Assembly (NCBI RefSeq): GCF_004343585.1
Contig: NZ_SLYW01000004.1
Span: forward strand, 62,001 to 126,000
Direction of reading: 5' to 3'
DNA from: Neorhizobium sp. JUb45
GTDB lineage: Bacteria > Pseudomonadota > Alphaproteobacteria > Rhizobiales > Rhizobiaceae
Length of the DNA stretch: 64,000 bases
Below, piece after piece: positions 15,341-47,210 of the stretch. Numbering within the stretch: position 1 is the stretch's first letter; each line of letters opens with the position of its first letter. Position numbers and translations under genes: made by a program. The notes under the pieces were generated by a model. It saw only the letters and a list, made by a program, of their open reading frames with translations. It searched no databases and was not told the origin of the DNA.

Positions 15341-15442
15341 GGTGGGAGGCTGGCACGGCGACCCGTGCCTGGCTCGTTAGGGCTGCTTCCTTCCGGACCT
15401 GACCCGGTTGGCGAGTGGCTCGTCCACCACCAACCTCCCACC
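15341..15442 (-). ncRNA. ffs: Signal recognition particle RNA (bacterial small type, 4.5S)
   Basis: The minus strand carries the conserved domain-IV core GGUCAGGUCCGGAAGGAAGC (about 15380-15402), which binds Ffh. Terminal sequences GGTGGGAGG (15434-15442) and CCTCCCACC (15341-15349) pair perfectly to close the rod, giving about 102 nt. TTGCAT and GATATG 17 bp apart just upstream form a plausible promoter. The RNA lies next to dnaX, as in other Rhizobiaceae. Confidence 0.96.
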
Positions 15443-40834: not shown

Positions 40835-40950
40835 GAAGTCAGCCTAATCGCCAGGCACTGAGGCCGCAAGCCTGAAAGAGTTATGCGCAAAACGCATGGC
40901 TGCGCTGCGAAACTCTGTCTGTTTTTTGAGCGAATATGCCGTATCTTACA

Positions 40951-41075
40951 AACATCGAAGCGACGCACTCCTCCTCCCAGTGTCGCTCGATTGGACTGGC
41001 AACACCTCCTCCTCCCGGTTGCTAGTCAGTATTAAGAACCCGGCGCACCTCCTCCCGCGCCGGGTTTCTTATTTT
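40951..41075 (+). ncRNA. sRNA with three CCUCC-type anti-SD loops (alpha-r14 / cuckoo RNA type)
   Basis: Three consecutive hairpins each expose a CCTCC motif: 40959-40987 (AGCGAC/GTCGCT, loop with CTCCTCCTCCC), 40994-41027 (10-pair stem, loop ACCTCCTCCTCCCG) and 41037-41066 (perfect 10-pair stem, loop ACCTCCTCCC) followed by TCTTATTTT as terminator. This is the layout of the rhizobial alpha-r14 family, which includes NfeR1 of Sinorhizobium meliloti. The 5' end (about 40951) is estimated. Confidence 0.85.
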
Positions 41076-43367: not shown

Positions 43368-43799
43368 TCAGAGCTTTCGCGCATTCTCCACCGCCATGCG
43401 CATGTATTCGAGCATAAGCTGCTTTTCAAAACTGCGAAATCCGTCGAGCAGTGCGCTTTCGGCCTCGGCCGCTGCACCAATTGCCTCGCTTTCAAGCGCC
43501 CTGCCACGCTCTGTCAGCGAGACGATCTGGGCGCGGCGATCGGTCGGGTGTGGTGTGCGTCCGACCAGTCCGTCGCGTTCCATGCGTGACAGTGTGTTGG
43601 CAAGAGTTGCCTGCTCGACATCGAGGCGATCAAGAATCTGCTTCTGGGTGAGGCCATCTTCCTGCCAGAGCTCGACGAGAACTGGGAACTGGCCGGGCGA
43701 AAACCCAAGCGTGACGGCGCGTTGGTGAAGTGATCGCGCAAACCCCTTGGCCAATTGGCCAGCCAGATAGGTCGCTGACTTGGAACGATCAAAGGCCAT
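43368..43799 (-). CDS. MarR-family transcriptional regulator
   Basis: 143-residue winged-helix repressor with the recognition region LTQKQILDRLDVEQATLANTL and the wing PTDRRAQIVSLTERG. The start ATG 43799 (MAFDRSKSATYL) follows GGAAGGA. No target gene adjoins it, so its effector and regulon are unknown. Confidence 0.9.
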   Translation of the reverse strand: MAFDRSKSATYLAGQLAKGFARSLHQRAVTLGFSPGQFPVLVELWQEDGLTQKQILDRLDVEQATLANTLSRMERDGLVGRTPHPTDRRAQIVSLTERGRALESEAIGAAAEAESALLDGFRSFEKQLMLEYMRMAVENARKL

Positions 43800-43918: not shown

Positions 43919-44072
43919 CCGAAAGCGAAACCGCCATGACCGGGAGGGGGATCGGTCATGGCGGCTCAGATAAGCGGCAAAGGCCCGGAGAGGGGGAAAG
44001 GCCCTTGCCCGATCTGAAGCGGCGGGGGACGAGCCAGCTTTCAGACGACGGCGTGATCAGGCGCCGTTGGTT
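43919..44072 (-). ncRNA. Candidate multi-hairpin sRNA with C-rich loops
   Basis: Reading the minus strand, four hairpins follow in order: 44048-44067 (ACGGCG/CGCCGT), 44013-44045 (TCTGAAAGC/GCTTCAGA, loop containing TCCCCCGCC), 43976-44009 (10 pairs with one G-U, loop TTTCCCCCTCTCC) and 43931-43964 (perfect 12-bp stem, loop ATCCCCCTCC) followed by TTTCGCTTTC. The repeated C-rich loops resemble cuckoo/alpha-r14 RNAs, but the motif is CCCCCTCC rather than CCTCCTCCC. It occupies the 426-bp MarR-polA gap, where no convincing ORF exists. A TTGAAA lies upstream near 44100. Confidence 0.6.
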
Positions 44073-44225
44073 TAGAAATGTGAGCCTGAATGCGGCTTTT
44101 CAAGGGAAGCAAGAATTACAAATCCGTAATAATACCCGGCGCCCCACTCGCAGGCGGCTTGCAAAGGCGGCGTATCCTGCCAAGTTTCATTGGACGCAAC
44201 CCACGTCACGCGATATCTCATGCCC

Positions 44226-47210
44226 ATGAAAAAAGGCGATCATCTCTTCCTAGTCGACGGCTCCGGCTTCATTTTCCGGGCCTTTCACGCGCTTCCCCCC
44301 CTGACCCGCAAGTCCGATGGGCTGCCGGTCGGTGCCGTATCGGGTTTCTGCAACATGCTGTGGAAGCTGCTGACTGATGCGCGCGACACTTCTGTCGGTG
44401 TCACGCCGACGCATTTTGCGGTCATCTTCGATTATTCCTCGAAGACGTTCCGCAAGGAAATCTATGATGCCTACAAGGCCAACCGTTCCGCGCCGCCGGA
44501 AGAACTGGTGCCGCAGTTCGGCTTGATCCGCCAGGCGACCCGCGCTTTCAATCTGCCTTGCATCGAGACGGAAGGTTTCGAGGCCGACGACATCATAGCC
44601 ACCTATGCACGACAGGCGGAAGCGACCGGAGCGGATGTCACGATCGTTTCCTCCGACAAGGATCTGATGCAGCTCGTGACGCAGATGGTCCACATGTATG
44701 ACAGCATGAAGGACAAGCAGATCAGTGTCCCTGACGTCATCGAGAAATGGGGCGTGCCGCCGGAAAAGATGATCGACCTGCAGGCGCTGGTCGGCGATTC
44801 GGTCGATAACGTGCCGGGCATTCCCGGTATCGGCCCCAAGACCGCCGCCCAGCTTCTCGAAGAATTCGGTGATCTCGACACGCTGCTCGCCCGTGCCGGC
44901 GAGATCAAACAGGTCAAGCGCCGCGAAAGCATCATCAATTTTGCCGATCAGGCCCGTCTTTCCAGGCAGCTGGTAGAGCTTCGCACCGACGTGCCGCTGG
45001 AGCTCGATCTGGATGCGTTGGTTCTTGAGCCGCAGGATGGTCCCAAGCTGGTCGCCTTCCTGAAAACCATGCAGTTCGGCACACTGACACGCCGCGTGGC
45101 GGCTGCCTGCGACTGCAATGCCGACGAAATCGAACCCGCTGAGGTCACTGTCGAGTGGGGTGACCTTGCCCGAGGTCCCGATCTCGATGCCGGAACCGCT
45201 GGAGATACCGTTCAGAGCGCGGGCGATGTGTCAGCAACGCCGGCAAAGGCGGCTGCTGCCAAGGGCAACGGCGAAGCCACGCCGGCATCGTTGGCCGAGA
45301 CGCGGATTGCCGCTTTCGGCAGTGCCAAGATCGATACGACCACTTACACGACGATCCGCGATGTCGAGGTACTCGACGACTGGATCAGGGCGGCGCGCGA
45401 AACCGGTCTCGTTGGTTTTGACACCGAGACCAATTCGCTTGATCCGATGCAGGCCGAACTGGTGGGTTTTTCGCTGGCGCTTGCCGACAACAAGGATAAT
45501 CCGTCGGGCCAGAAAATCCGGGCTGCCTATGTGCCGTTGACGCACAAGAACGGCGTCGGCGATCTTCTGGGCGGTGGTCTGGCCGAAAACCAGATCGCGC
45601 CGCGCCAGGCGCTCGACCGTTTGAAGGATCTGCTGGAAGATCCGTCGGTGCTGAAGGTCGCGCAGAACCTGAAGTTCGACTATCTGCTGATGAAACGCCA
45701 CGGCGTCACCGTCAGGAATTACGACGACACGATGCTGATGTCCTATGTGCTGGAAGCCGGCAAGGCGAACCACGGCATGGACGGGCTGTCGGAACGCTGG
45801 CTGAACCACAAGCCGATCGCCTTCAAGGAGGTCGCTGGCTCGGGCAAGAGCGGTGTTACCTTCGATCTGGTCGATATCGACAAGGCGACGGCCTATGCGG
45901 CGGAAGATGCCGACGTGACGCTGCGCCTGTGGATGGTGTTGAAGCCGCAGCTTGCCGCTGCTGGCCTCACCCGCGTTTATGAACGCCTGGAGCGGCCGCT
46001 GGTGTCGGTTCTGGCCGATATGGAAGAACGCGGCATCACCGTCGATCGTCAGATCCTCTCACGTCTTTCCGGTGAACTTGCCCAGAAGGCCGCAGCCTTC
46101 GAGGACGAAATCTACCAGCTGGCCGGTGAACGGTTCAACATCGGTTCCCCGAAACAGCTCGGTGACATCCTGTTCGGCAAAATGGGCCTGCCCGGCGGTT
46201 CCAAGACCAAGACCGGCCAGTGGTCGACCTCGGCCAGCGTGCTGGAGGATTTGGCGGCCGAAGGGGCGGAGCTGCCACGAAAGATCGTCGACTGGCGTCA
46301 ACTCACCAAGCTGAAATCCACCTATACCGATGCGCTGCCGGGCTACGTTCATCCTGAAACCAAGCGGGTGCACACATCCTATTCGCTGGCTTCGACCACG
46401 ACGGGACGTCTGTCCTCGTCGGAACCGAACCTGCAGAATATCCCGGTGCGCAATGCCGAAGGCCGCAAGATCAGGACGGCCTTCATCTCGACGCCGGGCC
46501 ACAAGCTGGTATCCGCAGACTACAGCCAGATCGAACTGCGTGTGCTGGCGCATGTCGCGGACATTCCGCAGCTGACCAAGTCTTTTGAAGACGGCATCGA
46601 TATCCATGCGATGACGGCATCGGAAATGTTCGGCGTGCCGGTGGAAGGCATGCCGTCAGAGGTGCGTCGCCGCGCGAAGGCGATCAACTTTGGCATTATC
46701 TACGGCATTTCGGCCTTCGGTCTTGCCAATCAGCTGTCGATCGAGCGCTCGGAAGCCGGCGAATACATCAAGAAGTATTTTGAGCGCTTTCCGGGCATTC
46801 GCGACTACATGGACAGCACCAAGGCAAAAGCTCGCGAGGATGGTTATGTCGAAACCATCTTTGGCCGCCGCATCAACTATCCAGAGATCAAGTCTTCCAA
46901 CCCGTCCGTGCGTGCCTTTAACGAGCGCGCGGCGATCAATGCTCCGATCCAGGGTTCGGCGGCCGATGTCATCCGCCGCGCCATGGTGCAGATGGAGCCC
47001 GCGCTTGCCGATGCAGGTCTGGGTGAGCGGGTGCGCATGCTCTTGCAGGTGCATGACGAACTGATCTTCGAGGTCGAGGACGCCGATGTCGACAAGGCGA
47101 TCCCGGTGATCGTGTCAGTCATGGAAAATGCCACCATGCCGGCGCTGTCCATGCGCGTGCCGCTGAAGGTGGATGCGCGTGCTGCCAGCAACTGGGATGA
47201 AGCGCACTGA
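44226..47210 (+). CDS. polA: DNA polymerase I
   Basis: Gap-filling and primer-removal polymerase, 994 residues, with all three activities. The 5' nuclease domain begins FLVDGSGFIFRAFHALP and contains FEADDIIATYA and SSDKDLMQLV. The 3'-5' exonuclease keeps its acidic residues (GFDTETNSLD, KFDYLLMKRHG), so proofreading is likely active. Polymerase motifs are ADYSQIELRVLAH, RRAKAINFGIIYG and VHDELIFEV. An insert rich in Ala/Gly (about 330-370) separates the first two domains. ATG 44220 is an equal alternative start. Confidence 0.97.
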   Translation: MKKGDHLFLVDGSGFIFRAFHALPPLTRKSDGLPVGAVSGFCNMLWKLLTDARDTSVGVTPTHFAVIFDYSSKTFRKEIYDAYKANRSAPPEELVPQFGLIRQATRAFNLPCIETEGFEADDIIATYARQAEATGADVTIVSSDKDLMQLVTQMVHMYDSMKDKQISVPDVIEKWGVPPEKMIDLQALVGDSVDNVPGIPGIGPKTAAQLLEEFGDLDTLLARAGEIKQVKRRESIINFADQARLSRQLVELRTDVPLELDLDALVLEPQDGPKLVAFLKTMQFGTLTRRVAAACDCNADEIEPAEVTVEWGDLARGPDLDAGTAGDTVQSAGDVSATPAKAAAAKGNGEATPASLAETRIAAFGSAKIDTTTYTTIRDVEVLDDWIRAARETGLVGFDTETNSLDPMQAELVGFSLALADNKDNPSGQKIRAAYVPLTHKNGVGDLLGGGLAENQIAPRQALDRLKDLLEDPSVLKVAQNLKFDYLLMKRHGVTVRNYDDTMLMSYVLEAGKANHGMDGLSERWLNHKPIAFKEVAGSGKSGVTFDLVDIDKATAYAAEDADVTLRLWMVLKPQLAAAGLTRVYERLERPLVSVLADMEERGITVDRQILSRLSGELAQKAAAFEDEIYQLAGERFNIGSPKQLGDILFGKMGLPGGSKTKTGQWSTSASVLEDLAAEGAELPRKIVDWRQLTKLKSTYTDALPGYVHPETKRVHTSYSLASTTTGRLSSSEPNLQNIPVRNAEGRKIRTAFISTPGHKLVSADYSQIELRVLAHVADIPQLTKSFEDGIDIHAMTASEMFGVPVEGMPSEVRRRAKAINFGIIYGISAFGLANQLSIERSEAGEYIKKYFERFPGIRDYMDSTKAKAREDGYVETIFGRRINYPEIKSSNPSVRAFNERAAINAPIQGSAADVIRRAMVQMEPALADAGLGERVRMLLQVHDELIFEVEDADVDKAIPVIVSVMENATMPALSMRVPLKVDARAASNWDEAH

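What the first reader, a model, noticed from the sequence alone, without database searches (positions are those of the whole stretch)
43919..44072. Four-hairpin RNA with repeated C-rich loops between marR and polA
Three of four consecutive minus-strand hairpins expose a run of five cytosines (TCCCCCGCC, TTTCCCCCTCTCC, ATCCCCCTCC), each closed by a long stem, the last perfect over 12 bp and followed by a T-rich tail. Chance is unlikely to place the same loop motif on three stems in 130 bp. It resembles the cuckoo/alpha-r14 anti-SD RNAs but with a different motif, and no ORF explains the gap. An anti-Shine-Dalgarno riboregulator is the natural hypothesis.
Basis: partly seen in the sequence, partly recalled or inferred. 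Interest (0 to 1): 0.75.

Follow-up and report, generated by a model that had tools for sequence, protein, structure and literature searches.

The report
Known rhizobial small RNA ar7
The four hairpins are a copy of ar7, a small RNA already known from rhizobia, whose C-rich loops probably pair with mRNAs; the new part is that a second RNA, beside the general-stress genes of the same genus, carries two of the same loops.

Summary
The feature is real and already named. Window 44069-43925 (minus strand) matches Rfam RF02342, ar7, at 97.9 bits (cut-off 60). It is the counterpart of S. meliloti SmrC7/sra03/SmelC023, published between polA and SMc02851 as a 148-150 nt transcript plus a 106 nt processed form, about 13-fold up in nodules (PMC2780559). 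The polA/marR position, four hairpins and constant loops on varying stems are published too (PMC3927594). One correction: the third loop's conserved core is CCTCC (108 of 110 loci); its run of five C is in 24 of 110. The anti-Shine-Dalgarno reading is plausible but untested; the one target I saw predicted in print, a zapA operon, is not supported in this genus. New here: in the window's genus a different small RNA, at the general-stress locus and behind an exact EcfG promoter motif (52 of 52 loci fetched), carries ar7's loop 1 and the core of loop 2 on other stems (50 of 57 genomes). It has the position and promoter of R. etli ReC64 and the proposed GsrN-like RNAs. Two stress systems may share one set of mRNA targets.

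The parts
43925..44069 (-). ar7 sRNA gene (RF02342), about 145-150 nt
   Evidence: cmscan 97.9 bits, E 7.5e-18, model 1-145 complete
44048..44067 (-). hairpin P1, the variable 5' hairpin
   Evidence: 80.7% of cells paired, 3 of 6 pairs with double changes in 44 sequences
44012..44046 (-). hairpin P2 with loop 1 GTCCCCCGCC at 44030-44021
   Evidence: 95.5% of cells paired; GTCCCCCGC in 109 of 110 loci
43976..44009 (-). hairpin P3 with loop 2 CCCCCTCTCC at 43996-43987
   Evidence: 99.8% of cells paired, 7 of 10 pairs with double changes; CCCCTCTCCGGG in 109 of 110 loci
43931..43964 (-). hairpin P4, terminator-like, loop 3 ATCCCCCTCC at 43952-43943, conserved core CCTCC
   Evidence: 98.5% of cells paired, 9 of 12 pairs with double changes; CCTCC in 108 of 110 loci, C5 in 24 of 110
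44099..44104 (-). CTTGAA, conserved -35-like element (the label RpoH-like is recalled)
   Evidence: CTTGAA upstream of ar7 in 109 of 110 relatives and in the window's own copy
44116..44129 (.). palindrome TTAC-N6-GTAA, possible regulator site between polA and ar7
   Evidence: present in 107 of 110 loci; binder unknown
43368..43799 (-). marR-family regulator downstream of ar7
   Evidence: Pfam MarR PF01047, E 5.5e-15
44190..47210 (+). polA (DNA polymerase I), divergent neighbour; its true start may lie downstream of the TTG listed
   Evidence: 1006 aa ORF; Pfam DNA_pol_A E 3.3e-156 and 5'-3' exonuclease domains

Best explanation
This is the ar7 (SmrC7/SmelC023) sRNA gene of a Neorhizobium-like bacterium: an independently transcribed RNA of about 148 nt ending in its own terminator-like hairpin. 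It most likely acts in trans. Rigid stems present three conserved C-rich loops (GUCCCCCGCC; CCCCCUCUCC; a loop with CCUCC) that pair with G-rich stretches of mRNAs, mainly ribosome-binding sites of the AGGGGGA or GGAGG type, and so block translation, with little or no help from Hfq. Shown here: family membership, covarying stems, fixed loops, conserved promoter elements, synteny. From print for S. meliloti: transcription, a processed 106 nt form, induction in nodules, no Hfq CoIP signal. Inferred: pairing with mRNAs, repression as the outcome, and that the window's copy is transcribed.
For: ar7 97.9 bits. ar7 at E <= 0.001 in 166 of 199 family genomes, over the cut-off in 134 of 199. TCCCCCGCC within 420 nt upstream of marR in 79 of 80 named loci fetched with marR, not with ar7. 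95.1% of stem cells paired against 85.4% shuffled; 22 of 34 pairs with double changes; slid controls 29-48% paired. In 44 sequences loop 1 TCCCCCG has 7 of 7 columns invariant and CCCCCTCTCCGGG 9 of 13, against 0-2 invariant columns per stem arm. Loop 1 and the core of loop 2 recur on other stems in a second RNA, which points to the loops as the working part. AGGGGGA lies 2-14 nt before ATG in the own genome in 67 matches (63 sites, one of them ar7's own antisense strand) against 10 for the reversed pattern, so such sites exist; G-rich Shine-Dalgarno sites alone would also give an excess. Print, passages only: expression (PMC2780559); no Hfq CoIP signal (PMC2848018); NfeR1 of the ar14 family silences ntrB through anti-SD loops and is Hfq-independent (PMC10746234).
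Against: No target has been tested, by me or in the passages I read. The one predicted in print, from loop 2 to the leader of an operon with zapA (PMC2245857, passages), is not supported here: in 900 nt upstream of zapA in 30 of the 57 genus genomes the longest exact complement of the family's loop 2 averages 6.3 nt, shuffled 6.9, reversed 6.7. Loop 1's full 10-nt complement occurs in the own genome at five places besides ar7, none convincingly just before a gene start, two of them the GSR-type RNA genes themselves. An 11-nt complement of loop 2 occurs at one other place, 18 nt before an ATG of a 138-codon frame of doubtful reality. Of the 30 candidate rows fetched (28 sites) only about a third look like true gene starts (my reading). 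The lack of an Hfq signal could be weak binding, as its authors say. Two loci, L089 and L099, lack CCTCC in the last hairpin.
Confidence: 0.7

Rival explanations
1. Same RNA, opposite sign: the C-rich loops bind G-rich stretches in 5' leaders or elsewhere in mRNAs and raise their stability or translation, as GsrN does for katG and PmaR for most of its targets.
For: GsrN's C-rich 5' loop pairs with the katG leader and increases KatG (PMC5869019, passages). [quoted passage not shown] The second RNA that shares ar7's loops has the position and promoter of the proposed GsrN-like RNAs.
Against: Loop 3 keeps CCTCC in 108 of 110 loci, the classic anti-SD core; NfeR1, the closest studied sRNA by architecture, represses.
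Confidence: 0.22
2. A protein-binding decoy: the repeated loops titrate an RNA-binding protein.
For: Similar loops on stable stems, and conservation of loop 2 into its closing stem.
Against: I know of no binder; the three loops are not the same motif across the family; Hfq was not detected on SmrC7.
Confidence: 0.05
3. A cis element: a marR leader or polA-marR boundary structure with no trans role.
For: It lies just upstream of marR in the 80 marR loci fetched (loop 1 exact in 79).
Against: Published as a separate 148-150 nt transcript with its own start and terminator; the A. tumefaciens C58 member is not next to polA; conserved -35-like element.
Confidence: 0.03

Closest known systems
ar7, RF02342 (SmrC7 / Smr7C / sra03 / SmelC023; ReC06 in R. 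etli; C2 in A. tumefaciens)
   Same: Score over cut-off, loops, stems, polA-marR position, length
   Different: Nothing essential; the window's loop 3 has C5 before CC, which most relatives lack (24 of 110), and loop 2 is preceded by TT where 84 of 110 relatives have ATCCCCCTC
ar14, RF02344 / cuckoo RNAs (NfeR1)
   Same: Several hairpins exposing C-rich, anti-SD-like loops on variable stems
   Different: ar14 loops are CCUCCUCCC; model score 49.4 below the 58.8 cut-off; nine ar14 matches in this genome, one ar7
ReC64 / GsrN-like general-stress sRNAs
   Same: In the window's genus they carry GUCCCCCGCC and (A)UCCCCCUC loops as ar7 does
   Different: EcfG promoter, beside a HWE kinase and phyR, different stems; model R1 of the second RNA gives the window's ar7 only 13.4 bits
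CcsR1, RF02791
   Same: C-rich loops
   Different: 18.3 bits against a cut-off of 65.3
PmaR (A. tumefaciens)
   Same: Functional C-rich loop
   Different: Reported only from Agrobacterium and one Rhizobium strain; mostly positive regulation; not anti-SD by its authors. I did not compare sequences

Membership tests
ar7 (RF02342) | Score over the curated cut-off of 60 bits | tested here: met
   97.9 bits, whole model
ar7 (RF02342) | Position between polA and a marR gene in Rhizobiaceae | tested here: met
   MarR, DNA polymerase I; print: PMC3927594
ar7 (RF02342) | Conserved loops on stems that change by compensation | tested here: met
ar7 (RF02342) | Primary transcript 148-150 nt and processed 106 nt | not testable with these tools
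   Known for S. meliloti; no transcript data for this genome
ar14 (RF02344) | Score over 58.8 bits | tested here: not met
   49.4 bits
ar14 (RF02344) | CCUCCUCCC in each of three loops | tested here: not met
   Loops are GUCCCCCGCC, CCCCCUCUCC, AUCCCCCUCC; motif definition
CcsR1 (RF02791) | Score over 65.3 bits | tested here: not met
   18.3 bits
GsrN/ReC64-like GSR sRNA, for the window RNA | EcfG promoter GGAAC-N16-CGTT | tested here: not met
   Absent upstream of the window's ar7 and in 0 of 110 relatives
GsrN/ReC64-like GSR sRNA, for the second RNA (G000:C1) | EcfG promoter GGAAC-N16-CGTT | tested here: met
   52 of 52 fetched loci; motif from PMC3892343
GsrN/ReC64-like GSR sRNA, for the second RNA (G000:C1) | Lies at the phyR/kinase/ecfG locus | tested here: met
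   Kinase beside it in 49 of 52 loci by tblastn; HWE kinase and PhyR by Pfam in L192 and L194, an ECF sigma factor in L195
GsrN/ReC64-like GSR sRNA, for the second RNA (G000:C1) | Common descent with ReC64, shown by sequence and structure | tested here: inconclusive
   R1 gives L203/L204 31 bits, but its own antisense strand scores 30.1 and a place without C-rich loops (L291) 32.2
GsrN/ReC64-like GSR sRNA, for the second RNA (G000:C1) | Needs EcfG for expression | not testable with these tools
   none

The most novel reading that the evidence does not exclude
In Neorhizobium and close kin two transcripts with different stems and promoters, ar7 (CTTGAA, marR-polA gap) and the sRNA of the general-stress locus (EcfG motif), carry the same seed loops (GUCCCCCGCC and (A)UCCCCCUC). 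The seeds were copied into, or fixed by selection in, a second scaffold, so that heat-shock/housekeeping and general-stress sigma factors control one shared set of mRNAs with G-run ribosome sites, and the loops rather than the whole RNAs are the unit of selection.
Probability: 0.35. Interest if true: 0.6.

Novelty: already known. Interest (0 to 1): 0.33.

Why it matters
ar7 has been in print since 2007 with nodule induction; in the listings and passages I saw it has no tested target, only a predicted one (zapA operon). The same seed loops under an EcfG promoter motif offer a concrete handle: mRNAs that change under general stress only when those loops are intact would be the first ar7-type targets. 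It also gives a clean case for asking whether C-rich loops behave as exchangeable seeds between sRNA scaffolds.

Tried and rejected
A new family related to ar14: rejected, the ar14 and CcsR1 models score below their cut-offs. A complementary 'sponge' RNA for ar7: the complement hits in L122 and L127 looked like one for a moment. Read on the other strand they carry ar7's own loops and end in a long hairpin, so they are a second C-rich sRNA. A plain paralogue of ar7: not my first description, because the second RNA sits at the general-stress locus with an EcfG motif, and sRNA-like C-rich sequences with an EcfG-like motif lie at the same place in other genera. I first leaned on model R1 for this; it is weak. 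R1 scores L198 at 35.3 and L203/L204 at 31 bits, the best ar7 locus among those given at 25.5 and the window at 13.4, but it also scores its own antisense strand at 30.1 and, in the 199-genome scan (12 of 199 genomes matched, the two Rhizobium genomes of L203/L204 not among them), places that show no C-rich loops such as L291, 32.2 bits. The published zapA prediction: not supported in this genus. Long full-loop complements as target sites: few. A first scan for ar14 beside marR returned 0 of 80 because of a fault in my spacing rule (exposed); the corrected scan is. Whether PmaR is related was not tested by sequence.

Rows left out: A1 holds the window plus 43 of the 110 loci L002-L111. The plus-strand loci were thinned at 88% identity to 35; of these the divergent L089 and L099 were left out before the covariation count. 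Of the 12 minus-strand loci besides L001, which were not thinned, 10 were used and L024 and L031 not. Of the 110 loci 30 were fetched with ar7 itself and are its best scorers; the counts for the 80 fetched with marR alone are in the full report. A2 holds 22 of the 27 rows. One of the 53 places of the second RNA (that of G220) was not fetched. In one search the matches outside the genus were compared with the ar7 places by eye; eight more were checked by cmscan and are ar7 below cut-off; the matches in G020 and G023 were not.

Full report
What is there. The window's minus strand at 44069-43925 is a full-length match to Rfam RF02342, ar7, at 97.9 bits against a cut-off of 60. The own genome shows one ar7 and nine matches to ar14. 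The fold is much more stable than shuffles, z = -6.2, and this is the only place in the 64 kb window with three runs of five C within 130 bp on one strand.

What print says (passages seen, unless stated). SmrC7 of S. meliloti lies between polA and SMc02851, starts at residues 201679/201681, is 148-150 nt with a stable 106 nt product cut at 201723, and rises about 13-fold in nodules (PMC2780559). It was found independently as sra03, with three long hairpins and covarying outer stems; there its 15-nt central loop is said to be complementary to the leader of an operon holding a zapA gene, data not shown (PMC2245857). It was seen again in strain 2011 (PMC2573895) and by deep sequencing (PMC2873474). 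It gave no signal in an Hfq co-immunoprecipitation, which its authors read as no binding or weak binding (PMC2848018); a later Hfq method paper lists primers for it, but in the passages I saw reports no result (PMC5928592). A review table lists RpoD and RpoH1/2 for it (PMC7143759). The 2011 survey describes the family RFMSmelC023: next to polA in all but the A. tumefaciens C58 member, a MarR gene beside the 14 Rhizobiaceae members, four hairpins, conserved loops on changing stems (PMC3927594, passages and part 1 of section 19). I saw no tested target. The library lacks most subscription papers.

Tests made here. ar7 is present at E <= 0.001 in 166 of 199 genomes of the family, over the cut-off in 134. 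Eighty named loci were fetched with the MarR protein, not with the RNA; the closest are Neorhizobium huautlense DS1307 (92% identity) and Endobacterium cereale (91%). TCCCCCGCC lies within 420 nt upstream of marR in 79 of the 80. On 44 aligned sequences (omissions in Tried and rejected) 95.1% of stem cells pair against 85.4% in shuffles; 22 of 34 pairs have changes on both sides; sliding the partner by 1-3 columns drops pairing to 29-48%. Over 110 loci GTCCCCCGC is kept in 109, CCCCTCTCCGGG in 109 and CCTCC of the last loop in 108, but five C in the last loop in only 24; upstream, CTTGAA is in 109 and the palindrome TTAC-N6-GTAA in 107. In the 80 loci fetched with marR alone these are 79, 79, 78, 11, 80 and 78. 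Reading CTTGAA as an RpoH-type -35 is recalled; it agrees with the review's sigma listing.

A reading of the processed form (inference). If position 1 of the Rfam model is the S. meliloti start 201681, the cut at 201723 is model position 43, just after the C run of loop 1 (model order read), and the remainder up to about position 148 is 106 nt. Processing would then remove loop 1's C run from hairpins 3 and 4. I did not fetch the S. meliloti sequence to check this.

The second RNA. Searching the own genome for the complement of loop 1 led to two more places of this kind. Read on the other strand they are small RNAs with GTCCCCCGCC and ATCCCCCTC loops on stems unlike ar7's. The window's own ar7 has TTCCCCCTC in loop 2; 84 of 110 relatives have ATCCCCCTC. 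Rfam gives one of the two 26.6 bits for ar7, far below the cut-off, and the other no ar7 match at E <= 0.5. In the genus 52 of 57 genomes match the two-loop pattern, whose control (pattern reversed) matches in none. By my count of its rows, borne out plus the one place not fetched, 50 of 57 carry the second RNA, three of them twice (G000, G202, G211). In the wider family (199 genomes, 84 with a match; reversed pattern three matches) the only matches that are not ar7 are in the three members of this genus, as far as I checked (and comparison by eye). Stems of the second RNA covary: 97.3% of cells paired against 88.8% shuffled, 15 of 29 pairs with double changes; but the number of further pair types does not exceed the shuffles (141 of 500 reach it), and its second hairpin never varies and so says nothing.

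What the second RNA is. All 52 fetched loci (49 genomes) have exactly GGAAC-N16-CGTT starting 48-52 nt upstream of loop 1; base-shuffled upstream sequence gives it 3 times in 10,400. That is the EcfG1 motif reported for R. etli (PMC3892343, passages). In 49 of the 52 a relative of the kinase lies beside it (the three without are the second copies). PhyR and a HWE kinase were confirmed by Pfam in L192 and L194 and an ECF sigma factor in L195. That is the position and promoter of R. etli ReC64 and of the GsrN-like RNAs proposed for Rhizobiaceae, described as having an exposed C-rich loop (PMC5869019, passages). Of 17 loci with the closest kinase relatives in other genera (L197-L213), I count 8 with an EcfG-like motif (spacer 15-19) followed by C-rich hairpin sequence near the kinase (my reading); their loops differ from ar7's, the nearest being GTCCCCGCC in L198. 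A covariance model of the second RNA scores L198 at 35.3 and L203/L204 at 31 bits, ar7 loci at 25.5 or less; since its own antisense strand scores 30.1 and a place without C-rich loops 32.2, these scores near 31 bits are not proof of common descent. Of 16 named genomes 14 match at E <= 0.001, all 14 at 125 bits or more, including N. galegae, N. vignae, N. huautlense and Endobacterium cereale; R. johnstonii 3841 and R. phaseoli JHI366 do not. Several of these are the same assemblies as, judged by their coordinates, so they add names rather than independent cases. Of the 16 best matches there, all 16 have the EcfG motif and GTCCCCCGCC and 15 the exact second hairpin; the exception is Pseudorhizobium tarimense.

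How it likely works. Two scaffolds with different stems and different promoters share two loops, which makes the loops the likely working part of ar7. They are C-rich; loop 3 holds CCTCC, the anti-Shine-Dalgarno core. The own genome has AGGGGGA 2-14 nt before ATG in 67 matches at 63 sites (one of them ar7's own antisense strand) against 10 for the reversed pattern; such an excess is expected of G-rich ribosome sites in any case, and of the 28 sites fetched about a third look like gene starts, so it shows only that suitable sites exist. The published zapA idea found no support: upstream of zapA in 30 of 57 genus genomes the longest complement of the family's loop 2 is on average 6.3 nt, against 6.9 in shuffles. 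The most likely mechanism is translational repression by pairing at ribosome sites, as shown for NfeR1 (PMC10746234, passages). Activation in the manner of GsrN or PmaR remains open. Neither has been tested for ar7.

Verdict. What I add is the sharing of two seed loops with the EcfG-motif RNA of the general-stress locus in the window's genus. I saw no mention of it in the listings and passages; I did not search for it under other names, so I claim no more than that.

Noticed in passing
window 40950-41072 (+): An ar14 copy (114 bits) lies 3 kb from ar7 on the other strand. In the 80 named marR loci a triple CCTCCTCC cluster lies 2.77-3.13 kb past the marR start on the opposite strand in 18, and at 5.5-6.3 kb in 4 more, so the proximity is conserved in part of the group.
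   Followed up: partly
G000:C12:67376-67762 (L193, L114): A second copy of the GSR-type RNA, with its own EcfG motif but no C run in the terminator loop, sits head to head with an ar14 copy.
   Followed up: partly
window 44116-44129: Palindrome TTAC-N6-GTAA kept upstream of ar7 in 107 of 110 loci, at a varying distance from the ar7 -35 element. Its binder, and whether it serves ar7 or polA, are unknown.
   Followed up: no
window 43937-43800 (-): The marR frame is open up into the ar7 terminator stem (ATG at 43937); gene callers may start marR too early. An overlap of this kind was noted in S. fredii.
   Followed up: no
L136, L137, L139, L140, L142, L148, L149, L150: ar7 members in some genera fall just below Rfam's cut-off (43-58 bits in 8 of 8 given, which I had picked as doubtful), so the Rfam cut-off undercounts the family.
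   Followed up: partly
window 15342-15438 (-): Bacterial small SRP RNA, 63.5 bits.
   Followed up: no
L127:173-281 (G000:C12): Atu_At1 sRNA family match, 101 bits, about 1.2 kb from the second copy of the GSR-type RNA.
   Followed up: no
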